In this document: piece after piece, positions 787 through 14,161 of the stretch
Position numbering within the stretch: the stretch's first letter is position 1
Layout of the letters: every line of letters begins with the position of its first letter
NCBI GenBank assembly: GCA_002729235.1
Contig: PBTY01000025.1
Location: 29,133-69,083, forward strand
DNA: 39,951 nucleotides
Source: Rickettsiales bacterium
GTDB taxonomy: Bacteria; Bacteroidota; Bacteroidia; Cytophagales; Cyclobacteriaceae
Reading direction: 5' to 3'
Made by a program: the position numbers and the translations under genes
The notes under the pieces: generated by a model
Database searches by the model: none
Told to the model about the DNA's origin: nothing
What the model saw: only the letters and a program-made list of their open reading frames with translations

Positions 787-2234
787 CACAAAAGGCGATT
801 CATAAATTCCTGCATGATAGAGGTGTAAAGGTTTTGTTTGATCAACTGATCTTCCACACCTTCATCCAGGTTGGGGTTATCGTTAATTTCAATAATGTAA
901 AATTTCTTACCTCGCTGCTTGATGTCCACACCATACAGACCGTTTCCGATCAATGAAGTGGCTTTCACAGCCAGGTTCAACAAAGCTTTTGGTGCTTCCT
1001 CCACAGCCATCGTGTCTGCTTCTCCTTCTTCTGGAGAACCAGCTCCTTTCCAGTTGACAATCTGCCAGTGATCCTTCGCCATGTAATATCTACACACATA
1101 GAGTGGCTTCTTGTTGAGTACACCTACACGCCAGTCAAAGTCTGTAGGAATAAACTCCTGAGCAATCACCAATTCTGAAGTCTGGAAAAAGTCTTTCAAC
1201 ACCTTCATCAGTTCCTCCTCATTCTTAGCTTTTTTCACTCCTTTGGAGAATGAACCATCTGGCTGCTTCAAAATGATCGGATACTCAAAACCTTTCGTAT
1301 TCAACTGTGAAAGTTTGTCCTTCTTGATGATGTAATACTTTGGCGTAGGAATCTTATGAGCACTCAATAGCTCACTCAAATACACCTTGTTGGTACATCT
1401 CAAAATCGACTCTGGATCATCCATCACAACTAACCCTTCTGAAGCGGCTTTCTTCGCAAACTTGAAGGTATGATGGTTCACATTGGTCGTTTCACGAATG
1501 AACAACGCATCGTATTGGATCAACTTCGCAAAGTCGTTTTTGGTAATCACATCCACGTTGAATCCAACTTTCTCGCCTGCTTTCACAAAGTTCTGAATGG
1601 CCTTCTTGTTGGATGGAGGAGTTTGTTCTTCTGGATTCACCAAAATCGCCAGGTCAAACCTCTTGCGGCTATAGCTCTTATTGAGTCGGTTTTTGCCTTG
1701 CAGGTATTCTTCCAAAGACTGTTTCATCAGTCCTTGAAGTCCTTCTGGAAGCTCCTTTAAGTTCAAAGGCTTAAGCTGCGTCAACTGCCACTTGTCTTTC
1801 TTCTGAAAAACCGCCTTGAGAATAGGCACTTGATACAGGTTAAACAATAAAGAACCTACTCTTGATAATTTTGGATCTTCCACGTTGCCCAAACAAACGA
1901 TCAATTCCAGCTTGTCGTCGCCTTGCTTTTTCAAAGCCTGCTGAATCACATCTTCAAAATCCTCCGCATCTTCTTTGACCAAAGTTGGGAATTTGAAGTC
2001 TTGCAATGTGGTAATCTGAGGCATTACTTTATGTCCTCTGGCTTCTGCCAACAAAGATACATAGTAGCCGATACTCTGATAAGAATAACTTTTACAGAGG
2101 TTGACCAATTTATATTTTCTGGATTTCTGATAGGTTTCATCAGAAAAATAGACTGAAGGTGAGATCACCTCAACATCCGAAGGCAGATCAGCTTTCTGGC
2201 TACCTCCTTCGAGTACAATAAGTTTATTTGCCAT
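786..2234 (-). CDS. RimK-family ATP-grasp ligase with N-terminal RLAN-like domain
   Basis: A 482-residue ATP-grasp ligase. The C-terminal half (about 250-480) is the ATP-grasp fold: a YPIILKQPDGSFSKGV nucleotide-binding strand, an AQEFIPTDFDWRVGVL segment, and the metal-binding end YGVDIKQ followed by IIEINDNPNLDEG. The N-terminal half (about 1-200) matches the general form of the RimK-like ATP-grasp N-terminal (RLAN) region. Family members form amide bonds, for example by adding glutamate to a peptide or protein C terminus. The gene sits between a C39-like peptidase (11-bp overlap upstream) and a GCS2 ligase (ATGA overlap downstream). The acceptor is unknown; ribosomal protein S6, the E. coli RimK target, should not be assumed. 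Confidence 0.85.
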   Translation of the reverse strand: MANKLIVLEGGSQKADLPSDVEVISPSVYFSDETYQKSRKYKLVNLCKSYSYQSIGYYVSLLAEARGHKVMPQITTLQDFKFPTLVKEDAEDFEDVIQQALKKQGDDKLELIVCLGNVEDPKLSRVGSLLFNLYQVPILKAVFQKKDKWQLTQLKPLNLKELPEGLQGLMKQSLEEYLQGKNRLNKSYSRKRFDLAILVNPEEQTPPSNKKAIQNFVKAGEKVGFNVDVITKNDFAKLIQYDALFIRETTNVNHHTFKFAKKAASEGLVVMDDPESILRCTNKVYLSELLSAHKIPTPKYYIIKKDKLSQLNTKGFEYPIILKQPDGSFSKGVKKAKNEEELMKVLKDFFQTSELVIAQEFIPTDFDWRVGVLNKKPLYVCRYYMAKDHWQIVNWKGAGSPEEGEADTMAVEEAPKALLNLAVKATSLIGNGLYGVDIKQRGKKFYIIEINDNPNLDEGVEDQLIKQNLYTSIMQEFMNRLL

Positions 2235-2955
2235 GATTTTTGGGTGTCAACACTAATAGGTTAGCGTCATAGGTTACAATACCCAATAGTATAGAGTTAA
2301 TTAATCGTTGTAATGACACTCGGTAATGCTGCTTATCGCTAATTGGGTTTTTCTCCAATGGATCGGCGATATGTGCCACTTTGTTGGTGACGTCATATCC
2401 GTGCACGACCACAAAATGTCCTGTAGGTTCTCCCTGAATGTCGTGATAGGTATTCGTTTCACCAATTTCCCTTGCACAATTGTACAAATAGGTAGCACTC
2501 AGACCTGTCAATATCGGTTTGTGCTCATTGAGCAGCATCCGAATCAACTTGGTATTGAGCTCCTGGAATTTGATTTGCCCGCCTAATGACAAGAATTTTA
2601 AGTAAGAATCCGCAGCTACCTGAAACTTGCGAGCAGTTTTATATTTTAGTTGCTCTGTCAGCTTTGCAGACAAATCTACCTCTCCCTGAAACCAGGTTGG
2701 GTCGAACATGTGAAGGTTGTAGGTGTAGATGGTGGCGTCATATCCCCTGGCCAAAGCATGGTTGCCCAGCATCACGGCCAAAGTACCGCCACCCTTCAAA
2801 GTTTTTACTTCTGAAATGACCTGATCCAACGACATGTTGTCGTCGTAATATTGGTAAACTGCCTGAAGGCAGGTAGGCCCACATGTCTCGTCGTTGGGCT
2901 GTGCGTGGATGTCCAGACTTAACGTTTTCGCATCCAAATCGTGGTTTTTAATCAA
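2224..2955 (-). CDS. C39-like cysteine peptidase
   Basis: A 243-residue papain-fold peptidase-like protein. Cys25 lies in DETCGPTCLQAVYQYY, the His in GHFVVVHGYD, and the Asp in ADPLEKNP, which gives the Cys-His-Asp order of the C39-like family (the bacteriocin-leader peptidase superfamily). There is no membrane or ABC-transporter part and no signal peptide, so it probably acts in the cytoplasm. It is the first gene of the operon with the ATP-grasp and GCS2 genes. No ATG lies in frame upstream of the catalytic Cys: an in-frame TAA directly precedes the TTG at 2955, so a TTG start there, or at the TTG six codons on, is the only choice. It could trim the ATP-grasp product or act on a carrier peptide (inference). 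Confidence 0.8.
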   Translation of the reverse strand: MIKNHDLDAKTLSLDIHAQPNDETCGPTCLQAVYQYYDDNMSLDQVISEVKTLKGGGTLAVMLGNHALARGYDATIYTYNLHMFDPTWFQGEVDLSAKLTEQLKYKTARKFQVAADSYLKFLSLGGQIKFQELNTKLIRMLLNEHKPILTGLSATYLYNCAREIGETNTYHDIQGEPTGHFVVVHGYDVTNKVAHIADPLEKNPISDKQHYRVSLQRLINSILLGIVTYDANLLVLTPKNHGK

Positions 2956-2980: not shown

Positions 2981-3044
2981 AACAAGTTTACGTATTCGTT
3001 GGAAATTGGATACTATATTTTCGATGGTTGGTGAAAATATTTTT
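2981..3044. repeat. R1 repeat, copy 1 (64 bp)
   Basis: This 64-bp stretch recurs at 4454-4517 in the same orientation with one mismatch (A at 3012, G at 4485). It begins AACAAGTTTACGTATTCG and ends GGTGAAAATATTTTT. Copy 1 lies between the divergent peptidase gene and the 152-residue membrane protein gene; copy 2 lies upstream of the 216-residue secreted protein gene. It may therefore carry a promoter or an insertion junction. No clear -33/-7 pair was found in it. Confidence 0.9.
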
Positions 3045-3149
3045 AGATTGATGGCGTGAAAGTTGAGCCTCTATGATTTGGTTCGGGAAGAGATGAACAT
3101 TCGCTGAAACAATGGCATCATGCATTAGAATTAATGAAAAACATTAAGA

Positions 3150-3608
3150 ATGACTAGTGAGAGTTTTGAAGTACTGTACAACATCGAGAATGAGACATTC
3201 CTTGAATTTCAGTTTGTCTTTGGTTATTTGTTCTTGTTGGTAATAATAAATATGATGGTTGCTCGCAGGTATATAAGTAAACAATTAGGAAGGATAGTTT
3301 TAATAGTCATATTTATATTTTCCATTGGTATTACTGCTAGACTTTGGTTTGTTTTCAACCAATATAAAGCACTTGAAGGTAGTAACAGCTGTAGTCAGAT
3401 AGAAGGTGCGGTTCAAGATTTAATATTGGGAGTGAAAGGTTCAAGCTCTTTTACTATTAATGGGGTATTGTTTCAGTTGCCAGGGGAAGGAACGGTGTCT
3501 TATGGATATCGAATTAGTGATTCTGAGATTAATAATGGTGATTGGTTACGCTTATGTTATGCAGGTAGAATAGTATTAAGAGTGGAGAGAGAAGTGTTAG
3601 TAGAATAA
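3150..3608 (+). CDS. Hypothetical membrane protein (152 aa)
   Basis: Not recognised. It has two predicted transmembrane helices, about residues 21-39 (VFGYLFLLVIINMMVA) and 50-68 (IVLIVIFIFSIGITARLW). A short soluble C-terminal half follows, with an IEGAVQDLILGVKGSSSFTINGVLF stretch (residues 90-115) that looks like a small beta domain. The start is the ATG at 3150. The gene lies between an R1 repeat and the first hairpin element, so it is one unit of the repeat-bounded accessory island. Codon use looks more AT-rich than in the flanking housekeeping genes, consistent with transfer, but this was judged by eye. Confidence 0.6.
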   Translation: MTSESFEVLYNIENETFLEFQFVFGYLFLLVIINMMVARRYISKQLGRIVLIVIFIFSIGITARLWFVFNQYKALEGSNSCSQIEGAVQDLILGVKGSSSFTINGVLFQLPGEGTVSYGYRISDSEINNGDWLRLCYAGRIVLRVEREVLVE

Positions 3609-3664
3609 GATCCTAATCTCGCGCAAGCGGTACAGATAGTCACTTTCTATCCAATGAATATCAT

Positions 3665-3712
3665 ATTCAAAATGCACGGTAATGGTTCTTGGGGACACGA
3701 ACCTGGGCTGAA
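3665..3712 (+). repeat. Hairpin element, copy A
   Basis: First of three directly repeated 48-bp elements. Each has an ATTCAAAATGCA-like left box, 7-8 variable bases, the hairpin, and the tail CTGGGCTGAA. In this copy one arm carries a mismatch (GGTTCTTG against CACGAACC, loop GGGA, 3684-3703). Sister copies are at 4407-4454 and 5313-5360. The element lies between the 152-residue membrane protein gene and the first TA pair. There is no T-tract after the stem, so it is not an ordinary terminator. Confidence 0.85.
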
Positions 3713-3809
3713 GTCCAACTAATTAATCTTTTCAACTTTGGATCAAAAACACACGAATATTCGTTATTTTGCTAGTAAAGCATTTAATCATGGATATACA
3801 AGCCGAAAA
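3685..3809 (+). repeat. R2 extended repeat, copy 1 (hairpin through antitoxin start)
   Basis: The 125 bp from the hairpin to the seventh antitoxin codon align without gaps to 5333-5457 at a constant offset of 1648. The last 86 bp (3724-3809) differ at one base only (T3731 against A5379). The repeat spans the complete upstream region, the ATG and codons for MDIQAEK, and ends abruptly there, while the rest of the two TA pairs has diverged. It probably holds the shared promoter/operator of both TA loci. No fully matching TAnnTTTG box was seen; TATTTTG at 3764 is the nearest. Confidence 0.9.
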
Positions 3810-4032
3810 GTACACCTTGATAGAAGAATTGATGAAGGTAACGGACGTTGAGCTCGTTAAAGAGATAAAATCAATTCTTCAAGGGATTAATCCAGAGGTT
3901 GGACAAAGAGCTGATGGAACTCCTGTGACTAAAGTACAACTACAGTCCGAAATTATTGCTTCAAAGAGGCAAATTGCAGATGGAGAATACACTACGCAAG
4001 AAGATTTGGAAAAGGAGTCTGAAAACTGGTAA
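3790..4032 (+). CDS. RelB-type antitoxin of TA pair 1
   Basis: An 80-residue protein starting MDIQAEKYTLIEELMKV, the N-terminal helix typical of small Bacteroidota antitoxins paired with RelE/ParE toxins. The acidic, lysine-rich C-terminal half would be the toxin-binding tail. The ATG at 3790 was chosen over an upstream TTG at 3769 because the paralogue at 5438 starts at the same place. The TAA overlaps the toxin ATG (TAATG), giving translational coupling. Antitoxins of this kind neutralise the toxin and usually repress their own promoter; that would act on the R2 region. No DNA-binding fold can be assigned from sequence alone. Confidence 0.75.
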   Translation: MDIQAEKYTLIEELMKVTDVELVKEIKSILQGINPEVGQRADGTPVTKVQLQSEIIASKRQIADGEYTTQEDLEKESENW

Positions 4033-4334
4033 TGGAGCAACCAGAGAATGTTTATGTAGTCAAATGGAGCAATGATGCAAAACATGAATTAAAATCCATA
4101 TTCAATTATATCAAGCAGGATTCACTGCAAAATGCAAAATTGGTCAAAAACCGGATTCTTGAAACCTCAAGAAGCCTCAGAACCATGCCCGAACGATACG
4201 AGGTTTATGAACCAATGCGCAATATCCCGGGCAATTATCGTGTAAAGGAAATTTCTTCTTATTTGCTCATCTATGACATTACCGCTTCAGAAGTGCATAT
4301 TGTAAAGATTATGCATGTCAGGGAACAGAAATAG
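4032..4334 (+). CDS. RelE/ParE-family toxin of TA pair 1
   Basis: A 100-residue protein with the RelE/ParE layout: an opening VVKWSNDAKHELKSIFNYI strand-helix, a helix with the RTMPERYEVYEP turn, then the NYRVKEISSYLLIYDI and VHIVKIMHVR strands. RelE members cleave mRNA on the ribosome and ParE members poison gyrase. Sequence does not decide between them here, though the conserved RxxPERYxxY form with a terminal HVR is common in plasmid-stabilisation ParE/RelE annotations. It is coupled to the antitoxin by a one-base stop/start overlap. Confidence 0.8.
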   Translation: MEQPENVYVVKWSNDAKHELKSIFNYIKQDSLQNAKLVKNRILETSRSLRTMPERYEVYEPMRNIPGNYRVKEISSYLLIYDITASEVHIVKIMHVREQK

Positions 4335-4406
4335 GATTACTTACTCTAGATTCACTTTGCAACCACTGGATCGCATAGTCACCATATTATCTAATTGAAT
4401 TTTGTC

Positions 4407-4454
4407 ATTCAAAATGCAGTTTCACGGTTCGTGGGGACACGAACCTGGGCTGAA
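4407..4454 (+). repeat. Hairpin element, copy B
   Basis: Contains the perfect 8-bp-stem hairpin GGTTCGTGGGGACACGAACC (4426-4445, loop GGGA), preceded by ATTCAAAATGCA (4407-4418) and followed by TGGGCTGAA. The left box sits at exactly the same distance from the stem as in copies A and C. Copy B directly abuts R1 copy 2 at 4454, which suggests a junction between joined units. Confidence 0.9.
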
Positions 4455-4517
4455 ACAAGTTTACGTATTCGTTGGAAATTGGATGCTATATTTTCGATGG
4501 TTGGTGAAAATATTTTT
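4454..4517. repeat. R1 repeat, copy 2 (64 bp)
   Basis: 63 of 64 bases are identical to 2981-3044. It lies immediately after the tail of hairpin copy B and 74 bp before the ATG of the 216-residue protein gene. Copy 1 has no hairpin in front of it, so the hairpin and R1 are separate repeats that happen to be joined here. Confidence 0.9.
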
Positions 4518-4591
4518 GTAATTAAAGTATGTCAATAAAATTCAAGATCTTAATGACTAGAAACTAACTATTCTATTGATTAATATCCCTT

Positions 4592-5242
4592 ATGATTCGC
4601 GCCATATCCGCATTATTTTTCTTAGTCACACTCTCACTAAATGTCTCTTGCCAGATCAATAAGCATTTGTTTACTAAAGCATTCTCCTTGGATTCAACAC
4701 TTTATGGATCTGGTAACGCATTTAATGTAATTGTTAGGATTAACGCCAGAAAATCAACCTATGATGCTATTGTCAATTTTGGACAATTAAGATATGCGCT
4801 GAGTAAAAAATTAAATATTCCAATATATTCTCATGAAATGAATAACCATCTCATAAACAATTATGAGTCCGGCTATAATTTAAACAGCAAACACTTTGGT
4901 ATTCATCTGGTCTCTTCCTATAAAAAAATGGATTCTCTTCAAAATACTGATGCCTTTAAAAGCATTACTAAACGATATATTGATGACAAATCTTCTTTAC
5001 AGAGAATTGAAAAATACATGCATATCAAAGACTCGGCTGCCATCTTTTTGGAAGATGATTACATGATGGATTCGCTGCCTTATTTTGACCTAAGCTCATT
5101 TGATTTTCATGACTTTATTCAAATCATGTGGGCAAATGGGTTCCTATTAATTGAAGGCCACAATAAAGTTTTGAATGTTGCAGATTTCAATAGGTTTTGT
5201 TCAAAATTTAGAGGTGGTCCCTTGCCCTTGTTGGTCTTGTGA
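4592..5242 (+). CDS. Hypothetical exported protein (216 aa)
   Basis: Not recognised. It has a clear N-terminal signal sequence (ALFFLVTLSLNVSC); the Cys at about residue 20 could be a lipobox cysteine, although the residues before it fit only loosely. The mature part is mostly helical and polar, with no known motif seen. It lies between R1 copy 2 and hairpin copy C, in the position that the unrelated 152-residue membrane protein holds in the first unit. It might be envelope-located cargo of the island. The product ends in the hydrophobic residues GPLPLLVL. Confidence 0.6.
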   Translation: MIRAISALFFLVTLSLNVSCQINKHLFTKAFSLDSTLYGSGNAFNVIVRINARKSTYDAIVNFGQLRYALSKKLNIPIYSHEMNNHLINNYESGYNLNSKHFGIHLVSSYKKMDSLQNTDAFKSITKRYIDDKSSLQRIEKYMHIKDSAAIFLEDDYMMDSLPYFDLSSFDFHDFIQIMWANGFLLIEGHNKVLNVADFNRFCSKFRGGPLPLLVL

Positions 5243-5312
5243 CCAATAAGAGCCATAGCATATTCTTTGTAAGTGTTGTTTGCATGTACCTCTCCATCAA
5301 ATTGAAAATCTT

Positions 5313-5360
5313 ATACAAATAGCAAATTTAAAGTTCGTGGGGACACGAACCTGGGCTGAA
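5313..5360 (+). repeat. Hairpin element, copy C
   Basis: Third copy. The stem GTTCGTG-GGGA-CACGAAC (5333-5350) is followed by CTGGGCTGAA, with a degenerate left box ATACAAATAGCA (5313-5324) at the same spacing as in A and B. It lies between the 216-residue protein gene and TA pair 2. The R2 extended repeat continues from it to 5457. Confidence 0.88.
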
Positions 5361-5457
5361 ATCGAAATAACTAATCTTATCAACTTTGGATCAAAAACAC
5401 ACGAATATTCGTTATTTTGCTAGTAAAGCATTTAATCATGGATATACAAGCCGAAAA
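5333..5457 (+). repeat. R2 extended repeat, copy 2
   Basis: Gapless counterpart of 3685-3809. It carries the upstream region, the ATG and the first seven codons of the second antitoxin. The central 5361-5371 segment has most of the differences, while 5372-5457 has one. Confidence 0.9.
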
Positions 5458-5677
5458 ACTCAGTTTGATAGAATGGATAGCCAAAGTGGATGATGATCGA
5501 ATCATCAAACAGTTCAAGGCTCTTCAGCAAACCAGTGAAGCAAGTTTATCCTCTCTTACAGAAAGAGAAAAAGCGGCTATTGATCAGGGCTTAAAGTCAA
5601 TCGAAGAAGGCAAGGTCCATGAACATGATGCCGTGATGCAATCCACAAAAGAAAAGTATCCGCATCTATTTAAATAG
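5438..5677 (+). CDS. RelB-type antitoxin of TA pair 2
   Basis: A 79-residue antitoxin starting with the same MDIQAEK as the gene at 3790, then diverging (LSLIEWIAKVDDDRII). Its C-terminal part, with TEREKAAIDQGLKSIEEGKVHEHDAV, is the form seen in many Bacteroidota addiction-module antitoxins. The ATG at 5438 corresponds exactly to 3790. The stop is five bases before the toxin ATG. Regulation is probably by autorepression through the R2 upstream region shared with pair 1 (inference). Confidence 0.8.
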   Translation: MDIQAEKLSLIEWIAKVDDDRIIKQFKALQQTSEASLSSLTEREKAAIDQGLKSIEEGKVHEHDAVMQSTKEKYPHLFK

Positions 5678-5682
5678 GCTTC

Positions 5683-5970
5683 ATGCAAATCATCTGGACG
5701 CAAGAAGCCAAGCAAGATTATCTCGAAAACATCGAATACCTACTCGAAAAGTGGACCGAAAAATCAGCTAGAAATTTCATCAATGAAGTAGATGATGTTT
5801 TAGAATTACTCCAAATCAATCCAAAACTATTTCCATTAAGCGACTATAAATCGATAAGAAGGGCAGTCATCCGTAAACAAATCACACTCTTTTACCAGCT
5901 CAAAGATTCTAATATCTATCTGATTCGATTCTGGAATTCATATCAAGATCCAGACTCTCTAGAGGTTTAA
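5683..5970 (+). CDS. RelE/ParE-family toxin of TA pair 2
   Basis: A 95-residue toxin with the ParE/RelE pattern: MQIIWTQEAKQDYLENIEYL, a central helix NFINEVDDVLELLQINPKLFP, then the strands IRRAVIRKQITLFYQL and IYLIRFWNSYQDP. The C-terminal IRFWNSRQDP-like end is typical of Bacteroidota RelE/ParE toxins. Similarity to the pair-1 toxin is at fold level only. The N-terminal tail is short and there is no signal peptide, so it acts in the cytoplasm. It is the last gene of the repeat island; no fourth hairpin follows it. Confidence 0.82.
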   Translation: MQIIWTQEAKQDYLENIEYLLEKWTEKSARNFINEVDDVLELLQINPKLFPLSDYKSIRRAVIRKQITLFYQLKDSNIYLIRFWNSYQDPDSLEV

Positions 5971-6021: not shown

Positions 6022-6051
6022 CAAAAAAAAGGGAGACTTCCGCCTCCCTTT
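6022..6051 (-). terminator. Rho-independent terminator of the giant surface protein gene
   Basis: Stem AAAGGGAG (6028-6035) pairs with CTCCCTTT (6044-6051), and the A-run at 6023-6030 gives a T-tract on the minus strand. It lies 29 bp after the stop of the gene at 6080-13915. Confidence 0.8.
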
Positions 6052-6079
6052 GTCTCCGAATAATTCAGAGCCGCCCTAG

Positions 6080-9000
6080 TTAATTGCTCTTCAATATTTT
6101 CTGTACTGTGATTTGATCTCCTTCGCGAACCACCAGCAAATACATTCCTTTTGGAAGTTCTTGAAGGTCAAACGTCAGTTCCTTTCCTTTTTGTGAATTC
6201 AACACTTCCTGACCAGACAAATCATGAAGACTAACTGTCAGTACTTTCTCACTAATGATGTTTACAAACTGGTTGGTAGGGTTCGGGTAAATGGATACTT
6301 CTAAAGCTTCTTCAAATCCGAGAATTGCCTCTTTGGTCACAGTCACTAACCACTCTTCAGAGGTAATACCATCCTCTGCTGTGATGGTGTATATCACTGG
6401 ATTTGTAAAATCAACCACCTCACCACTTGCAGGATTACTTGTAGCTCCTTCTGCCAATTCAACCAATGGAGCAAGTTGGGTTATATCTGTTTCTGCTGAT
6501 ACTTCTATAAAGATCTCTTTTTCAACCGGATCCATTGTTATTTGCAAACGTCTTCCTGGAAGTGCAAACGAAAGAAAATCTGTAGATGAACTTAGCTCTT
6601 CTACGGTAACGGTAACAATCCAATTTCTATTGATCTCACCATCTTCAGCAGTAATGGCATACGTAACAGGATCTGTGAAATCAACCGTTGCACCATTTTC
6701 AGGATTACTCGAAGCACCCACAGAAAGCGTCAAAGTAGGCACCAAAGAAGACACATCTGTTCCAAAAGCTACTTCGATCGATACGGTTTGGGATGATTCA
6801 TCGATTATGGCAACACCTGTCTGTTCAGGCAACTCGAATGCAAGGATATCCGCTTCAGAATTCAATTCTGAAGATTCCTCCGTTACGGTTACTAACCATA
6901 CCTGTTGTGTTTCCTGATCTTCAGCAGTTACTGTGTATGCGACAGGACTATCTGCTGATGAACTAAAGTCTACCTCCTCTCCACTTGCTGGATTGCTTGT
7001 AGCTCCTTCAGACAAGGTAATACTCGGAGCAATGGCTGTAAGATCAGTTCCTTCGGAAACTACCACAGTAATAGTATGATTTTCAGTATTGATGCTTGCG
7101 GATTCAACTTGCTCAGCGATAACAAAGCCAAGGATATCAGTTGAAGAATCGGGCACCGCCGCCTCTTCTTCAACTGTGACCACCCACGTTTGAGTAGTAC
7201 CATCCTCAGCTGTGACCAGATAAGTCACCGTATTATTATCTGATATCGTAAAATCAACTATCTCTCCACTTGTAGGGTCACTCGATGCTCCTTCTGACAG
7301 AATAATACTTGGGACTAGAGAGGATAGATCAGTTCCCTCTGCCACAATTACAGAAACAGTATGGTTTTCAGTATTGATGGTTGCCGATTCAACTTGCTCA
7401 GCGATAATAAAGCTGAGGATGTCTGTTGAAGAATTTAACTCCGCAGCATCTTCTTCAACAGTCACTAGCCACGCCTGCGTAGTGCCATCCTCAGCTGTGA
7501 CCAGATAAGTCACCGTCATATTTTCTAATAAAGTGAAATCAATCACCTCTCCACTCTCTGGATCACTTGTAGCCCCTTCTGACAAGGTGAAAACCGGAGC
7601 CAGATTAGTAAAATCTGATCCTTCAGTCATCACAACCCCGATTGCATGAGAGACCGTGTCAATTACAGCATCCGAAACCTGATTTGCCAATTCAAAAGTG
7701 ATGATATCATTCTCCGAACTTAGAATGACTTCATTTTCAACGGTCACCAACCACACCTGCTGAGATGTACCGCTGGCCGCGGTAATAGTGTAGGTAACCG
7801 GATCTGTAAAATCTACTGCAACTCCACTTTCTGGATTACTTGTAGCATCCTCAGACAAAGTGAATACTGGAACTAATGCAAATAGGGACGTTTCCTCTGA
7901 TACAATAACTGAAACGGTATGATTTTCGGAATCAATAATTGCCGGTTCAATTTGTTCAGATAAATCAAAGGTTAAAATATCATTCTCAGAGTTAGGAGCT
8001 ACCGTCACAGTCACAGTCCAAGATTGAGTGCTCGACTCATCCTGTGCCGTAACTGTTAGGATAGCTGGCTCAGCAAAACTCATTGTTGTACCTGATGCCG
8101 GACTACTGGTTGCTCCTTCTGACAAGGAAAAAGAAGGAGTTAATACAGAAAGATCGGTCCCAAAAGCTACCTCAATTTCCACTTCATGATTTTCTTCATC
8201 TATAATAGCCTCTCCAGTTTGCTCGCTCAATTCGAAGGTTATAATATCTGTAGCAGTATTAGGTGCTACGTTTACTGTTACTAACCAATCCTGTGTTGTC
8301 GTACCATCCTGTCCAGTAACAGTGTAAGTAACTGGATTGCTAAAATCAACAGAAGAGCCACTCTCAGGTGAAAAGGTAACATCTTCCAAAACGGTAATCT
8401 CAGGAATCAATGAAGTCACATCAGTGCCAAAAACCACTTCTATTGTGACAGTATGTACCTCTGAATCAATGATAGCTGAACCAGTCTGAGAGTCTAGTAC
8501 AAAACTCTGAAGATCGGTATTTAGAGACGCTACAGTAACTGAAACAACCCAATCCTGAGTAGAACCATCCTGAGCAGTCACAGTATAGGTGACTGGATTC
8601 GTAAAATCTGAAATCACTCCACTTTCTGGGGAGCTTGTAGCATCTTCCGATAGAGTAAATACTGGAGTCAATTCTGTCAGATCGGTTCCAAATGGCATCG
8701 TAACATTGACCTCATTCGTTTCACTTAGTATCTCTATCGATTGTTGATTTGGAATCTCAAAAGTCAGAATATCTGTGCCTGTTTTCGGGTCAGCAGCGAC
8801 AACCGTCACCAACCATTCCTCAATGGACTCTCCGTCCTCAGCTGTAATGGTATAAGTAATATTAGAAGAGAAATCAATCGATTCTCCAATAGCCGGACTC
8901 ACCGTAGCCTCTTCTGAAATGGTTAGGTTTGGAGTCAATCCTGTCAGATCGGTTCCAAATGGCATGATGATGTCAATGGTTTGGTTGGTGTCATTTCGAT

Positions 9001-12000
9001 TGATCCTCTCTTGATTAGGAATAGCAAATGTTAGCAAAGAAGCTTCATCAGAACATAATTGCCCCTCATCGCTGATATTCCACCCATAAGTACCCATCAA
9101 TAGTGCTCTGGCCTCTGCTCCCTGGCAATAGTTGATACCAGATGCACCAAGTGAAACATTACTTTTTAATCCACCCTGACTAGCCCATCCAATTAGTGTA
9201 AGGTCATAGTTATCATCGCTCAGACCAGAATCATCAAACATTCTACCCATATCAGTCACCTTACTAACGTCCCAGGAACTTAGATTCTGGTTGAAGGAGG
9301 AAGCTCCACGAAACATATCATCCATATCTTGAGCGCTACTCACATTCCAGCTACTTAAATCTGAATTGAAGGAAGTAGCCCCTTCAAACATGTCATAGAA
9401 ATAGACTACTGCACTAACATCCCATTGACTGATGTCTCCAGCAAATGATGTAGCATTCGAAAACATTTCATTCATATTATTCACAGAAGAAAGGTTCCAG
9501 GTACTAATGTCACCATTGAAGGACGTAGCATCTGCGAACATATCATAAATCCGGACTACATTTTCTGTATTCCAGGAGTTGAGATCCTGATTAAATGCTC
9601 TAGCATAACTGAACATGTAATCCATTTCTGTGACAGAACTAACATCCCAGGTATTGAGTGGTTGATTAAATGCAAAAGCCGATGTAAACATGCTGCTGAT
9701 ATCTTGTACAGCACTGACATCCCAAGCATCCAATGGCTGATTGAATGAAGTATCATAAGCAAACATATACTCCATTTCTAGTACTGAACTCACATCCCAG
9801 CCATTGATCTCTCCATTAAATAAATAGGCGGAATAGAACATATAACTCATATCAGTAACACTGGAAGTCTCCCAGGAGCTAAGGTCCTGATTAAAAGATC
9901 TCGCACCCTGAAACATCGAATACATAATAACGACGCTACTTACATCCCATTCATTGAGTGGTTGATTAAATAAGCTTGCATATTGAAACATATAACTCAT
10001 GTACTCGACATTGCTCACATCCCAGTTTGATAGATCTGAATTGAAGGAAGCAGCGTTATAGAACATTTGACTCATGTTCGTCACTTCTGATAAATCTGGT
10101 GCATCGGTAGCACTAAATCCTGTTCCATCCCAGTCTTTAAAACTGCTTTCCATGGACTGCCACTTAACATCTCCCCACTGCAATACATCTTCTATGAAAA
10201 AGGATTTAAAGATGTGAGGAAATTCACCAGCGATTGACACCTGATAGGTACCCGGTTCCGGCACCTCAATTGACAATGCCCCAGATTGATGTTGACCATT
10301 TCCTGCTATTGCTTCATCATCCACTTTTTGCCATGAATAGGCAAAATCATAAGAAAATGCTGGATTCAATGGTATGCCAAAACTACTATTGGCTCCAACT
10401 TCGGTCAGCACAACAAAGGCATCTATAACCTCTAAGCTTAAAGACCATTCTTGCTGTGTGACACCATCTTCTGCTGTAACTGTATAAATAATTGGAGCGG
10501 AATCAGATCCTGTAAAATCAACTGCTTCTCCACTTGCCGGACTACAAGTAGCACCATGAGACAATTTAAATGTGGGAACCAATGCAGTGACATCCAAATC
10601 ACCTGTGTTATAGCCTGATATTTTTACGGTGTGATTTGTGGTATCTATTTCAGCTTCTCCAATTTGATTTCCTATAGTAAATGTTCTGAAGTCTGTTTTG
10701 GTATTAGCAGCTCCATCATTCGCTATCACTGTCACAGTCCACTCTTGCGTTATGGAAGTATCCGCTGCTGTCACAGTATAAATCACTGGACTTGTAAAAT
10801 CTATCGCTTCTTGGCTTTCTGGCGTGATCGCAGCTCCCTTGGACACCGTAATGGTTGGACTTAAACTAGTCAGATCTGTTCCAAACGCCACTTCCAACTC
10901 AATAGTATGTGCTGTTGAGTCAATAAATGCCGGTTCCGTTTCTTCTGCTAACTCGAATGAAAAAATATCTGTCCCCTGAGCACAGTCCGCAACATCGCCT
11001 TCAAATACCCATCCATAATCTGACTTTAAGGTGTCTCTAGCGGCCGCACCTACACAAAATGTAAGACCCGCTGCACCTAATCGAACATTACTATTCAAAC
11101 TATCTAAAGCTAGCCAACCGATCAATATCTTGTCATAGTTCTCCTGACTTAATCCAGAGTAATTGAACATTCTGTGACCACCATTAAATGTTCCAGCAAG
11201 TAATGAAGTAACATTCCAGTTGCTGAGATCCTGATTAAAGGACACAGCTTGATGAAACATATCATTCATATCGATTACGTTGCTCACGTCCCAGTCAGAT
11301 ATATTGTTGTTAAAGGAATAGGCATTGTAAAACATGTCATCCATTTCCGTTACACTACTTACGTCCCAACCACTCAGATCACCATTGAACACTTCATTAA
11401 AAGCAAACATGGATCTCATATTAGCCACATTACTTACATCCCAGTTACTGATATCTCCATTGAACGAAGAGCCATAAAACATATAACTCATAGTGATAGC
11501 GCTACTAACATCCCAGCTACTCATGGAATTTCCGGTGTAAACCTGGTTGTAATAAAACATTCCATTGAAATTGATCACGTTACTCACATTCCAGCCACTG
11601 ATGTCATGATTATAAGATGCAAAAGCGAGCATATAACTCATATCTGTGACATTACTAAAATCCCAAACGCTTAGATCACTAATGAAAGATTGTGCGTAGT
11701 AGAGGAATCCAGCAAAACTGGTTACACTACTAATATCCCAGCCAGTGATATCTCCAGAAAACTGTGAACTTGAGAACATGTAGCTCATATCTGTCACGTT
11801 ACTTACATCCCAACTACTGATATCGCCATTAAATATTGTTCCTGAAAACATACTACTCATGTCTGTAGCACTACTTACATCCCAGCCACTTAGATCCTGA
11901 TTGAATGCAACATTATATGAAAACATCCCTGAAAAATCAGTTACATTGCTGACGTTCCAGGAACTGATATCTCTATCAAAATACATATCATCTTCATCTC

Positions 12001-13915
12001 CACTAAACATGTAGCTCATGTTGGTTACACTACTGACATCCCAGGAACTCAAGTCTCCATTGAAGGATTCAGCTCCTTCAAACATCTCCGACATATCTGT
12101 TACATTGCTCACATCCCAATCACTGAGATCCCCATTAAATTCGTAGGCATAACTAAACATTTCCGCCATGCTTGCTACCTCAGACAGGTCTGGCAAATCT
12201 GTAGCACTAAAGGTCTCTCCATCATAATATTCGAAAGACTCTTCCATACTTTTCCATTCAATATCTCCCCACTGAGAGACATCAGTTAGATCATCCATGG
12301 AACTGCTTGGAATCAAAAAATGCGGAAACTCACCTACTATTGAAAGTGTGTTCTCTCCTGCCGGCAAACTAGTGACGAAATCTCCATCATCAGTTGTATG
12401 CCATCCACTAGTCACAGGCTCCCCATTATTAGTCCATAAGTAGCCAAAATTATAATCAAAGTCCCCGTCCAAATTAAGCCTAATATTACTTTCCTCACTT
12501 AACTGCCAGACAGTGACAAATGGGTTAATGGGCTCAGATCGATAAACCTTCCAAGTCTGCTGGGTAATGGCATCTTCTGCTGTGACAGTGAATAAGACAG
12601 TATCAGAAGCAACAAAACTGATGCTAGCCCCACTAGCAGGTGAAACTGATGCTCCCCTAGAGGTGGATATTATTGGGGTTAAAACAACTTTATCTTCGAA
12701 TTGAACAATCTCTATTAAATGATTGACAGTGTCAATATTTCCTACACTTTGATCAGCGCCAACATCAAAAGTCAAGATATCGGCTTCAGTACTTGCCTCA
12801 ATGGCATTTTCCACCGAAACAATCCATTCTTGCTCTAACCCATCCTGTGCAGTAACGGTGTAGATCACATTATTGGTAAAATCTAATTCAACACCATTTT
12901 CCGGAGAAATACTCGCTTTATTAGAAATACTTATGGATGGCTTAAACGCTGTTAGATCAGCACTTTTAATCATTGTTATAGAAACCGTATGATTGTCAGA
13001 ATCTATCTGGTTATCTATCTGATCCAAAATATCAAAAGACAAAATATCATTAGCTGCAGAACATGCTGATCCTCCATCGCTAAACGTCCATCCATATTGA
13101 CTCTTTAATGAGTCTCTGCCTGCTTTAGCTTCGTAGGAGCAAAATTTTCGTCCATTAGCCGTGAATTGAACATTTCTTTCTTGAATTGATAGCTTAGACC
13201 AGCTGATCAACATACTATCATAATTCGCAATAGTAATACTTGTATTATCAAAGGACATGTTGAATGACCTGGACTTGCTGATATCCCAATTACGAAGCCC
13301 TTTCCCTTCAAAATCAGTGGCATTTCTAAATATTCTGGCGAAGAAATCGATTTTACTTACATCCCAGGAGCTGAGGTCCTGATTGAACTTTTTGGCATCC
13401 TCAAAGGCCATAGCAATCGATGTGATGTTACTTACATCCCAACTGCTGATATCTCCATTAAAATTGGATGCCCCTCTAAATATTTCTCCAAAGTTCTTCA
13501 CATTTTGAAGATTAGGAACATCAGAAGTACTGAAGCCTGCACCTTTCCAATCTTTAAATGCTCCAGAAAAGTTCTTCCACTCAATATCCCCCCACTGCAA
13601 TACATCGGTAAGTTTTCCTTTTGGATATCCAGTAAAATGCGGAAATGCTCCAGTGATTTCAAGTGTATAGGTTCCGGCAGTAGCAAACCCTGTTTTAAAA
13701 ACCCCATCTGATGAGGTGTGCGTTCCTGAACTAATAGTGGTCCCATCGCTATTTTTCCATTCATAGGAAAAATCATAGGAATGGTTGGTGTTTGGAATTA
13801 TTTCAATAGTATCCTGATCTGAGGTCAGCGTCCAGGAAGTAATAAAAGGACTGGTCTGTGCAACAATAGTGTATGCACCAAACAGACACATTACTGATAA
13901 TAAGAAGTTTTTCAT
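6080..13915 (-). CDS. Giant secreted BspA-like/DUF5018-like repeat protein with T9SS sorting domain
   Basis: A 2611-residue exported protein. The ATG at 13915 was chosen because it gives a signal peptide (MKNFLLSVMCLFGAYTIVAQ); the 29 codons upstream do not look like protein. The layout is PKD-like segment, BspA (DUF285) block 1 (about 128-242), two DUF5018-like domains; PKD-like, BspA block 2 (572-935), two DUF5018-like domains; PKD-like, BspA block 3 (1272-1580), ten DUF5018-like domains (1623-2530), and a T9SS type A sorting domain (2539-2611) with SIYPNPTNQFVNI and GMYLLVV. The PKD-BspA-DUF5018 super-module thus occurs three times. Such proteins are secreted through the outer membrane and kept at the cell surface; BspA-type repeats mediate adhesion in other bacteria. 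The role here is inferred to be adhesion or gliding-related. Confidence 0.9.
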   Translation of the reverse strand: MKNFLLSVMCLFGAYTIVAQTSPFITSWTLTSDQDTIEIIPNTNHSYDFSYEWKNSDGTTISSGTHTSSDGVFKTGFATAGTYTLEITGAFPHFTGYPKGKLTDVLQWGDIEWKNFSGAFKDWKGAGFSTSDVPNLQNVKNFGEIFRGASNFNGDISSWDVSNITSIAMAFEDAKKFNQDLSSWDVSKIDFFARIFRNATDFEGKGLRNWDISKSRSFNMSFDNTSITIANYDSMLISWSKLSIQERNVQFTANGRKFCSYEAKAGRDSLKSQYGWTFSDGGSACSAANDILSFDILDQIDNQIDSDNHTVSITMIKSADLTAFKPSISISNKASISPENGVELDFTNNVIYTVTAQDGLEQEWIVSVENAIEASTEADILTFDVGADQSVGNIDTVNHLIEIVQFEDKVVLTPIISTSRGASVSPASGASISFVASDTVLFTVTAEDAITQQTWKVYRSEPINPFVTVWQLSEESNIRLNLDGDFDYNFGYLWTNNGEPVTSGWHTTDDGDFVTSLPAGENTLSIVGEFPHFLIPSSSMDDLTDVSQWGDIEWKSMEESFEYYDGETFSATDLPDLSEVASMAEMFSYAYEFNGDLSDWDVSNVTDMSEMFEGAESFNGDLSSWDVSSVTNMSYMFSGDEDDMYFDRDISSWNVSNVTDFSGMFSYNVAFNQDLSGWDVSSATDMSSMFSGTIFNGDISSWDVSNVTDMSYMFSSSQFSGDITGWDISSVTSFAGFLYYAQSFISDLSVWDFSNVTDMSYMLAFASYNHDISGWNVSNVINFNGMFYYNQVYTGNSMSSWDVSSAITMSYMFYGSSFNGDISNWDVSNVANMRSMFAFNEVFNGDLSGWDVSSVTEMDDMFYNAYSFNNNISDWDVSNVIDMNDMFHQAVSFNQDLSNWNVTSLLAGTFNGGHRMFNYSGLSQENYDKILIGWLALDSLNSNVRLGAAGLTFCVGAAARDTLKSDYGWVFEGDVADCAQGTDIFSFELAEETEPAFIDSTAHTIELEVAFGTDLTSLSPTITVSKGAAITPESQEAIDFTSPVIYTVTAADTSITQEWTVTVIANDGAANTKTDFRTFTIGNQIGEAEIDTTNHTVKISGYNTGDLDVTALVPTFKLSHGATCSPASGEAVDFTGSDSAPIIYTVTAEDGVTQQEWSLSLEVIDAFVVLTEVGANSSFGIPLNPAFSYDFAYSWQKVDDEAIAGNGQHQSGALSIEVPEPGTYQVSIAGEFPHIFKSFFIEDVLQWGDVKWQSMESSFKDWDGTGFSATDAPDLSEVTNMSQMFYNAASFNSDLSNWDVSNVEYMSYMFQYASLFNQPLNEWDVSSVVIMYSMFQGARSFNQDLSSWETSSVTDMSYMFYSAYLFNGEINGWDVSSVLEMEYMFAYDTSFNQPLDAWDVSAVQDISSMFTSAFAFNQPLNTWDVSSVTEMDYMFSYARAFNQDLNSWNTENVVRIYDMFADATSFNGDISTWNLSSVNNMNEMFSNATSFAGDISQWDVSAVVYFYDMFEGATSFNSDLSSWNVSSAQDMDDMFRGASSFNQNLSSWDVSKVTDMGRMFDDSGLSDDNYDLTLIGWASQGGLKSNVSLGASGINYCQGAEARALLMGTYGWNISDEGQLCSDEASLLTFAIPNQERINRNDTNQTIDIIMPFGTDLTGLTPNLTISEEATVSPAIGESIDFSSNITYTITAEDGESIEEWLVTVVAADPKTGTDILTFEIPNQQSIEILSETNEVNVTMPFGTDLTELTPVFTLSEDATSSPESGVISDFTNPVTYTVTAQDGSTQDWVVSVTVASLNTDLQSFVLDSQTGSAIIDSEVHTVTIEVVFGTDVTSLIPEITVLEDVTFSPESGSSVDFSNPVTYTVTGQDGTTTQDWLVTVNVAPNTATDIITFELSEQTGEAIIDEENHEVEIEVAFGTDLSVLTPSFSLSEGATSSPASGTTMSFAEPAILTVTAQDESSTQSWTVTVTVAPNSENDILTFDLSEQIEPAIIDSENHTVSVIVSEETSLFALVPVFTLSEDATSNPESGVAVDFTDPVTYTITAASGTSQQVWLVTVENEVILSSENDIITFELANQVSDAVIDTVSHAIGVVMTEGSDFTNLAPVFTLSEGATSDPESGEVIDFTLLENMTVTYLVTAEDGTTQAWLVTVEEDAAELNSSTDILSFIIAEQVESATINTENHTVSVIVAEGTDLSSLVPSIILSEGASSDPTSGEIVDFTISDNNTVTYLVTAEDGTTQTWVVTVEEEAAVPDSSTDILGFVIAEQVESASINTENHTITVVVSEGTDLTAIAPSITLSEGATSNPASGEEVDFSSSADSPVAYTVTAEDQETQQVWLVTVTEESSELNSEADILAFELPEQTGVAIIDESSQTVSIEVAFGTDVSSLVPTLTLSVGASSNPENGATVDFTDPVTYAITAEDGEINRNWIVTVTVEELSSSTDFLSFALPGRRLQITMDPVEKEIFIEVSAETDITQLAPLVELAEGATSNPASGEVVDFTNPVIYTITAEDGITSEEWLVTVTKEAILGFEEALEVSIYPNPTNQFVNIISEKVLTVSLHDLSGQEVLNSQKGKELTFDLQELPKGMYLLVVREGDQITVQKILKSN
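6083..6305 (-). other. T9SS type A C-terminal sorting domain
   Basis: The last ~73 residues carry the Por-secretion signature: YPNPTNQFVNI, then VSLHDLSGQEV, then LPKGMYLLVV and a basic end (ILKSN). This directs export through the type IX system, which is found only in Bacteroidota, and attachment at the cell surface. Confidence 0.9.
6325..9045 (-). repeat. Ten tandem DUF5018-like beta domains
   Basis: Ten units of about 90 residues. Each has the pattern D-I-L-x-F near its start, a TV.IEV..GTDL..L.P strand pair, LSEGATS.P.SG..VDF, YTVTAEDG and W.VTV. Units 10-12 (counting all 14 in the protein; roughly 6850-7720) are the most alike, also at nucleotide level, which suggests recent duplication. 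Four more units lie at about 12530-13050 and 10425-10970. Confidence 0.85.
9175..10100 (-). repeat. BspA-like (DUF285) repeat block 3
   Basis: Eleven 25-residue repeats of the form W-D-V-S-x-V-x-x-M-x-x-M-F-x-x-A-x-x-F-N-x-x-L/I. The block is preceded by a PKD-like region and GEFPHI, and followed by a cysteine-bearing closing segment (NYCQGAEARALL...YGW). Confidence 0.9.
11110..12200 (-). repeat. BspA-like (DUF285) repeat block 2
   Basis: The longest block, with thirteen 25-residue WDVSNVTDMSYMF-type repeats. One unit (near 11980-12010) carries a 4-5 residue acidic insertion (GDEDDMYFD). It has the same flanking PKD-like and closing Cys segments as the other blocks. Confidence 0.9.
13190..13530 (-). 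repeat. BspA-like (DUF285) repeat block 1
   Basis: A short block of three recognisable repeats (ISSWDV, LSSWDV, LRNWDI), with the same flanking segments as blocks 2 and 3. It probably shows the module before repeat expansion, or after loss. Confidence 0.85.
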
Positions 13916-14161
13916 AGTGTTACTGGCATTAGCGTGAATAGAAATGACAATCCTGAAAACACCACTGATTTCCCTTTTCTCAGTTGGCGACATGTGTATC
14001 AAGCAGTCATTTCTGCTAGCCTCCGAGTAGATTTTACAACGAAACCTAACATAGAGCCTATTCTAGGCTTCGAAGCTCTAAGAAATGATCAATACTATTT
14101 ATAGAGTTATTGGTTTGACGTGGTTGCATGAGAGTTTGGTAGCAACGCTTGAGAGAAGGGG

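What the first reader, a model, noticed from the sequence alone, without database searches (positions are those of the whole stretch)
2981..5970. Repeat-bounded accessory island with alternating R1-hypothetical and hairpin-R2-TA units
The order R1, hypothetical gene, hairpin A, R2, TA pair 1, hairpin B, R1', hypothetical gene, hairpin C, R2', TA pair 2 is seen directly. The hypothetical genes are unrelated to each other, while the flanking repeats are nearly identical. This suggests that genes were exchanged between fixed repeats, as in a cassette array, or that one unit was duplicated and its cargo replaced. No integrase, transposase or canonical attC is present.
Basis: partly seen in the sequence, partly recalled or inferred. 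Interest (0 to 1): 0.75.

Follow-up and report, generated by a model that had tools for sequence, protein, structure and literature searches.

The report
REP-tagged accessory-gene hotspot in Marinoscillum
This is a chromosomal spot in a marine bacterium where unrelated accessory genes and toxin-antitoxin pairs sit between short conserved repeats; a sister species carries a different gene at the same spot, and the hairpin between units belongs to a known kind of repeat tied to a single-strand DNA transposase.

Summary
The described layout is real: R1/R1' match at 63 of 64 bases, R2/R2' at 85 of 86, the hairpins at 27-28 of 29. Each hairpin ends a 3' module that starts at a stop codon. The hairpin is a REP element: near-identical palindromes flank a REP-associated tyrosine transposase (RAYT) gene elsewhere in this genome and in M. 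pacificum, and the pattern occurs in 48 of 295 family genomes. R1 is the native leader of the neighbouring peptidase gene. At the same site M. pacificum has R1, an unrelated 252-aa ORF and a related 3' module. In two other species of the genus the flanking genes adjoin; in two more, other genes lie there. So cargo varies between fixed flanks. Most likely two alleles of a hotspot became joined in tandem, and cargo was swapped by recombination at short conserved blocks; the exchange itself was not observed. No integron integrase passes its cut-off in the genus. Whether a RAYT moves REP-bounded cargo is untested; direct REPs around non-RAYT genes (8 of 10 pairs, hand-picked sample) keep that open.

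The parts
2224..2955 (-). C39-like peptidase gene; left anchor of the hotspot
   Evidence: Pfam PF13529 41.1 bits, cut-off 24; found in 6 of 6 genus genomes
2981..3044 (.). R1, part of the native leader upstream of the peptidase gene
   Evidence: 63/64 to R1', 62/64 to M. pacificum; diverged homologue in G772
3150..3608 (+). gene 1, 152-aa protein, no family found
   Evidence: ORF; no Pfam, NCBIfam, PHROGs or PADLOC match
3606..3683 (+). 3' module A, from the stop codon to the hairpin
   Evidence: similar to B and M (0 of 2000 shuffles) and to C (4 of 2000)
3684..3712 (+). hairpin A: REP palindrome plus TGGGCTGAA tail
3724..3809 (+). R2: antitoxin upstream region, with a perfect palindrome ACGAATATTCGT at 3753-3764, and the first 20 bases of the antitoxin gene
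   Evidence: 85/86 to R2'
3790..4032 (+). antitoxin 1, 80 aa
   Evidence: ORF overlapping the toxin by one base; matches in 6 of 6 genus genomes, own included, at E up to 0.01
4032..4334 (+). toxin 1, ParE family, 100 aa
   Evidence: PF05016 54.2 bits, cut-off 23
4332..4425 (+). 3' module B
   Evidence: strongest match to the M. pacificum module, score 36.5 against a shuffle maximum of 20.5
4426..4454 (+). hairpin B: REP plus tail
4454..4517 (.). R1', copy of the peptidase leader joined directly to hairpin B
   Evidence: 63/64 to R1 and 63/64 to the M. pacificum R1
4592..5242 (+). gene 2, 216-aa protein with a likely signal sequence (by eye); its 3' end overlaps a second REP type
   Evidence: ORF; no family match; one sub-cut-off NCBIfam match, E 0.014
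5219..5250 (+). decayed copy of a second REP type (GTTGGTC TTGT GACCAA)
   Evidence: 94% match over 32 bases to a palindrome beside a RAYT gene in G770
5240..5331 (+). 3' module C
   Evidence: similar to M (0 of 2000) and A (4 of 2000), not to B (346 of 2000)
5332..5360 (+). hairpin C: REP plus tail
5372..5457 (+). R2', upstream region and first 20 bases of antitoxin 2
   Evidence: 85/86 to R2
5438..5677 (+). antitoxin 2, 79 aa
   Evidence: ORF; residues 1-31 match antitoxin 1
5683..5970 (+). toxin 2, ParE family, 95 aa
   Evidence: PF05016 38.7 bits, cut-off 23
6022..6080 (.). right flank shared with M. pacificum (terminator-like AAAAAAAGGGAG...CTCCCTTTG, then the 3' end of the large minus-strand gene)
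   Evidence: sequences

Best explanation
The island is an accessory-gene hotspot between a C39-peptidase gene and, in relatives, an NADH-dehydrogenase-like gene of Marinoscillum. An allele of the hotspot has the form: native leader (R1), variable gene, 3' module ending in a RAYT-type REP hairpin, then (in this strain) a toxin-antitoxin upstream block (R2) with a variable ParE-type pair. This strain carries two such alleles joined head to tail at hairpin B/R1'. Shown: the layout, the REP identity of the hairpin, R1 as native leader, and different cargo at the same site in sister species. Inferred: cargo is replaced by homologous recombination of incoming DNA between short near-identical blocks (R1, REP plus R2), and the tandem arose by unequal or microhomology-assisted joining. 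The TA pairs probably stabilise the locus. The REPs mark the unit ends and may help recombination, but need not be acted on by a RAYT.
For: M. pacificum, same site: R1 62/64, an unrelated 252-aa ORF, a 3' module plus REP, and the same right-flank sequence. The peptidase and dehydrogenase genes adjoin in G770 and G250 (sequence), while other ORFs lie between them in G772 (one HigA-like, name recalled) and G773. R2 identity of 85/86 stops abruptly 20 bases into the antitoxin gene, while upstream DNA at 5 other antitoxin sites of the genus looks unrelated by eye beyond a short string; this favours recombination over selection on the whole block. The hairpin matches the REPs flanking RAYT genes of G000 and M. 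pacificum; the G000 RAYT matches NF047646 at E 1.3e-17.
Against: No second strain of this species was available, so exchange is seen only between species. The donor of allele 2 was not found. No recombination event was dated or mapped. The 3' modules differ far more (58% for A-B even with the REP included) than R1 or R2 do, so a single duplication does not explain all the parts. The M. pacificum contig ends about 200 bp into the right flank, and about 240 bp of other repeats lie between its REP and that flank. The NF047646 score (64 bits) is below its cut-off of 80.
Confidence: 0.6

Rival explanations
1. REP-bounded gene cassettes moved in trans by a RAYT: direct-repeat REPs act as the left and right ends of a single-stranded segment (as in IS200/IS605), so that each excised unit is one gene or TA pair plus one REP.
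For: The hairpins are all in one orientation. In 28 hand-picked REP loci, REP pairs around a RAYT gene were inverted in 9 of 9. Pairs around other ORFs were direct in 8 of 10, or 7 of 9 if L195, a RAYT fragment, is dropped. The genome keeps a RAYT of the matching kind. E. coli TnpAREP cleaves and recombines single-stranded REPs in vitro (PMC8266576, passages).
Against: R1' is a copy of the native leader, and no REP lies at its left end in the native context, so unit 3 is not cleanly REP-to-REP. Unit 4 has no closing REP. The REP is low-copy (9 hits in G000). The exact TGGGCTGAA-tailed form occurs in the own genome only in the island (3 places at up to 3 mismatches). The literature listings seen name no RAYT-driven movement of genes (top rows). 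The sample of REP pairs was not random.
Confidence: 0.13
2. A single tandem duplication of one unit, followed by ordinary divergence without cargo exchange.
For: R1/R1' and R2/R2' have about the same identity, 63/64 and 85/86.
Against: Gene 1 and gene 2 are unrelated and the TA bodies are far diverged, while nearby non-coding DNA is 98% identical. M. pacificum holds a third unrelated gene.
Confidence: 0.1
3. The REPs are only transcription ends or mRNA stabilisers that spread after genes, and the array is a chance pile-up in a tolerant intergenic region.
For: Each REP lies 75-91 bp after a stop codon. REPs have been hypothesised to act in transcription termination and mRNA stabilisation (PMC3733652, start of abstract in the listing).
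Against: It does not explain R1' or R2', nor the related 75-91 bp before each REP that starts at the stop codon, which other REPs tested do not have.
Confidence: 0.12
4. An integron-like cassette array with 3' modules as attC sites.
For: Module length and position after the stop codon resemble attC (recalled); TA genes are common cassette cargo (recalled).
Against: TIGR02249 passes its cut-off in 0 of 6 genus genomes; the best partial matches skip about model positions 180-238. Stretches of 7-10.5 kb around three own-genome recombinases, cut by contig ends, hold no direct repeats of 30 bp or more. The hairpin is explained as a REP.
Confidence: 0.03

Closest known systems
REP elements and RAYT/TnpAREP transposases, subclass 2.6-like (Bacteroidetes)
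   Same: Short palindrome flanking a ~180-aa RAYT gene in inverted orientation, with copies elsewhere; RAYT motifs NHIH and WQ; 'atypical' structures without GTAG, as PMC6006769 describes for subclass 2.6 (sections 13 and 25 and passages read).
   Different: Here solo REPs end a 3' module behind cargo genes, in direct orientation. A GGC tag two bases after the hairpin (75 of 97 copies in 28 loci) stands in place of GTAG. The G000 RAYT reads YIHRNP where the paper gives YIH[QN]NP; some relatives read YIHNNP.
Chromosomal integron cassette arrays
   Same: Similar layout: one gene or operon plus one 3' palindromic element per unit, with variable cargo behind a fixed leader (integron features recalled).
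   Different: No integron integrase over cut-off; the leader is duplicated inside the array; the element is a REP.
Type II ParDE/RelE-like TA modules
   Same: ParE-family toxins with small upstream antitoxins and a palindromic operator-like site.
   Different: Two diverged pairs share one near-identical upstream block and antitoxin start.
E. coli REPtron locus replaced by a TA operon (cited in PMC6006769, passage)
   Same: REP/RAYT context and TA genes alternate at a locus.
   Different: There the RAYT locus itself is replaced; here no RAYT was found at the hotspot.

Membership tests
REP element of a RAYT | Same palindrome flanks a RAYT gene in inverted orientation | tested here: met
   G000 C39 and M. 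pacificum RAYT loci, near-identical palindromes; 9 of 9 RAYT-spanning pairs inverted in the 28 loci; RAYT match beside the palindrome in 7 of 30 single-hit loci, one of them weaker (E 1.8e-15), with a one-sequence profile
REP element of a RAYT | 5' GTAG/GTGG tag beside the hairpin | tested here: not met
   Tag is GGC two bases 3' of the hairpin (GCC on the other strand) in 75 of 97 copies; subclass 2.6 is reported not to carry GT[AG]G
REP element of a RAYT | High copy number, dispersed | tested here: not met
   9 copies in G000 at up to 1 mismatch, 3 of them in the island
REP element of a RAYT | Cleaved by the cognate RAYT | not testable with these tools
   needs a cleavage assay
RAYT (gene at L034:8363-8908), subclass 2.6 | NCBIfam REP_Tyr_transpos model and motifs NH[LIV]H, WQ, YIH[QN]NP | tested here: inconclusive
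   E 1.3e-17 but 64 bits against a cut-off of 80; NHIH and WQ present, YIHRNP in place of YIH[QN]NP
Integron | IntI integrase | tested here: not met
   0 of 6 genus genomes over the TIGR02249 cut-off
Integron | attC core sites (RYYYAAC/GTTRRRY, recalled) and folded bottom strand | not tested
   looked for by eye only; no attC model was run
Type II TA, ParE toxin | ParE domain over the gathering score | tested here: met
   54.2 and 38.7 bits, cut-off 23
Type II TA, ParE toxin | Toxicity neutralised by the upstream antitoxin | not testable with these tools
   needs expression tests

The most novel reading that the evidence does not exclude
RAYT transposases, so far seen as movers of bare REPs, act in trans on direct-repeat REPs to excise and insert gene-sized single-stranded cassettes. 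That would make REP-bounded arrays in Bacteroidota an integrase-free counterpart of integrons.
Probability: 0.1. Interest if true: 0.85.

Novelty: new variant of a known kind. Interest (0 to 1): 0.42.

Why it matters
It ties a Bacteroidota REP family to the ends of swapped accessory genes. It also offers a concrete test of whether RAYTs, kept in genomes for unclear reasons, move genes or only REPs. The orientation contrast (inverted around RAYTs, mostly direct around other genes) can be counted genome-wide.

Tried and rejected
Integron: TIGR02249 rings in 6 of 6 genus genomes and 14 of 14 control genomes as sub-cut-off tyrosine recombinases, over the cut-off in none. Stretches of 7-10.5 kb around three own-genome matches (C60, C33, C8), cut by contig ends, hold no direct repeats of 30 bp or more.

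Origin of the 3' module from a decayed RAYT 3' end: the M. pacificum module resembled the DNA at its RAYT 3' end (2 of 2000 shuffles reached the score) and C did so weakly (26 of 2000), but A and B did not. A RAYT C-terminus profile scored the four modules no better than shuffles (A 187 of 294, B 286 of 300, C 260 of 294, M 277 of 298 scored shuffles at or above the observed score). Rejected.

Module as a common element: in 295 family genomes the sequence model gave a match in 30; full-length matches lie only at this locus (3 in G000, 1 in G771). The other hits have E 7e-6 to 0.01 and cover part of the model, often the REP part (stricter filters were used, so weak full modules could be missed). 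I checked 6 of these loci (L208, L209, L211, L213, L215, L217). L215 gave no REP by pattern. The DNA before the 10 REPs of the other 5 is no more like the modules than shuffles are.

Mobile-element origin: no match of the island in plasmids or phages, none of the REP pattern in viral contigs, no gene 2 relative there (gene 1 was not searched there). No Rfam match, no PADLOC match.

DNA folding of the modules: strong only for B (z -4.0), weaker for A (z -1.95); C (-0.47) and M (-0.86) are no better than shuffles. The module outside the REP is not a conserved structure on this evidence.

Results against the reading: B-C module similarity (score 11.5) is not above chance and lies within the range of 72 control scores (maximum 14.5); A-C (15.5) is only just above it. 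The 390-genome order scan with a longer pattern found only G091 besides the own genome, and there the REPs lie in a tandem array without clear genes. In the phylum scan 8 of 395 genomes matched, own included, and one reversed-pattern control hit occurred (G478).
Full report
What is there. R1 (2981-3044) and R1' (4454-4517) differ at one base of 64. R2 (3724-3809) and R2' (5372-5457) differ at one of 86, after which identity falls to 61 of 150. The boundary lies 20 bases inside the antitoxin gene. The three 29-bp hairpin-plus-tail sequences differ from each other at one or two bases and have no further copy in the window at up to 3 mismatches; 100 shuffles gave none. Gene 1 and gene 2 are unrelated, and the toxins do not match each other by BLASTP, although both are ParE by Pfam.

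The repeat unit is longer than 48 bp. From the stop codon of each gene to the hairpin there are 75, 91 and 89 bp. These stretches are related. In pairwise alignment A-B, A-M, B-M and C-M exceed all of 2000 shuffles, A-C is reached by 4, and B-C is not significant (346); M is the module of M. pacificum. The 72 control scores, against the DNA after 18 other stop codons in the window, reach at most 14.5. The six module scores run from 11.5 (B-C, within the control range) to 36.5. The DNA before 10 REPs at five loci of other genera is not like the modules.

What the hairpin is. Pattern searches of the own genome found further copies on contig C39. There they flank a 181-aa gene (L034:8363-8908) that matches the NCBIfam model for REP-associated tyrosine transposases at E 1.3e-17, below its curated cut-off, and Pfam Y1_Tnp weakly (E 0.0083, below cut-off). 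The M. pacificum RAYT at G771:C2 is flanked in the same way, by inverted near-identical copies. The palindrome pattern was found in 8 of 395 phylum genomes and 48 of 295 family genomes, where the reversed-pattern control columns shown were zero. A RAYT match lay beside it in 7 of 30 single-hit loci of up to 1.5 kb either side. All 6 genus genomes have RAYT matches; the own genome has 13, fragments included. So the hairpins are REPs of a RAYT close to subclass 2.6 of PMC6006769 (sections 13 and 25 and passages read). The GTAG tag is absent; a GGC tag two bases after the hairpin takes its place in 75 of 97 copies in 28 loci.

What R1 and R2 are. R1 lies directly upstream of the C39-peptidase gene. 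It is kept in M. pacificum (62/64) and recognisable in G772, so it is native leader DNA. R1' is a copy of that leader placed right behind hairpin B. R2 holds a perfect 12-bp palindrome (3753-3764) and the antitoxin start. One search found 11 antitoxin matches in the genus, 2 of them the island's own. One search printed upstream DNA for 5 of the other 9 (those with the searched start motif). By eye it is unrelated to R2 apart from a short TCGTTA-like string at most of them. Hence R2 as a whole is not simply conserved by selection in this family, though a short part of it may be.

The site varies between species. In M. pacificum the same site holds R1, a 252-aa ORF unrelated to gene 1 or gene 2, a 3' module with a REP, about 240 bp of other repeats, and then the same right-flank sequence, after which the contig ends. 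In G770 and G250 the peptidase gene directly adjoins the NADH-dehydrogenase-like gene. In G772 and G773 other ORFs lie between them, in G772 including one that looks HigA-like (name recalled from its sequence, not scanned). The window was placed in Marinoscillum because the peptidase is 95% identical to that of M. pacificum MRN461; contig length and place show G771 to be that genome, and the tool lists it as same genus.

How it probably works. The two halves of the island have one architecture and share R1 and REP-R2 blocks, but carry different genes. The simplest account is two alleles of one hotspot joined in tandem, with cargo replaced by homologous recombination in the short near-identical blocks. 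The exchange itself was not observed. A bolder account is RAYT-driven movement of REP-bounded units. In 28 loci hand-picked for several copies or kinship, REP pairs around RAYT genes were inverted in 9 of 9. Pairs around other ORFs were direct in 8 of 10, one of the 8 being a RAYT fragment (L195). TnpAREP of E. coli cleaves and recombines single-stranded REPs in vitro (PMC8266576, passages). Against this account, R1' has no REP at its left end in native context, the last unit lacks a closing REP, and copies are few.

Literature. Searches with RAYT or REP terms together with Bacteroidetes, toxin-antitoxin, gene cassette and cargo showed nothing on REP-bounded gene cassettes in the rows listed, which are the top rows of longer lists. 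Only listings, and passages or sections of three papers (PMC6006769, PMC3733652, PMC8266576), were seen. The library is open-access only.

Verdict. A real, well-formed variable locus. The parts are known kinds (REP, RAYT, ParE-type TA); their cassette-like arrangement is a new variant.

Noticed in passing
window 5219-5250: A second REP type overlaps the 3' end of gene 2; the same palindrome occurs in several places in G250 and beside a RAYT gene in G770.
   Followed up: partly
L034:9010-9375: A truncated duplicate of the RAYT gene (61 codons, 9071-9256) lies between two direct-repeat REPs behind the intact gene.
   Followed up: no
L182:2288-3085: In G784 a two-gene unit that looks like a HEPN/MNT toxin-antitoxin pair (names recalled, not scanned) is bounded by direct-repeat REP-like hairpins, the second one 14 bases after the stop codon.
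   Followed up: no
L011:8500-9600: In G091 the same palindrome recurs three times inside a larger tandem repeat without clear genes.
   Followed up: no
window 6080-14002: A 2640-aa minus-strand protein with repeated ~95-aa units and a C-terminal sorting-like tail (by eye) lies next to the hotspot; G770 and G250 do not have it at this place.
   Followed up: no
L089 (G772), reverse complement about 2030-2780: A partial second copy of the dehydrogenase gene's 3' end and a HigA-like ORF lie in the same gap.
   Followed up: no
G000:C60:47388-48185, C33:80559-81362, C8:6795-7604: Tyrosine recombinases with the highest own-genome scores to the integron-integrase model, but without a match at about model positions 180-238.
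   Followed up: partly
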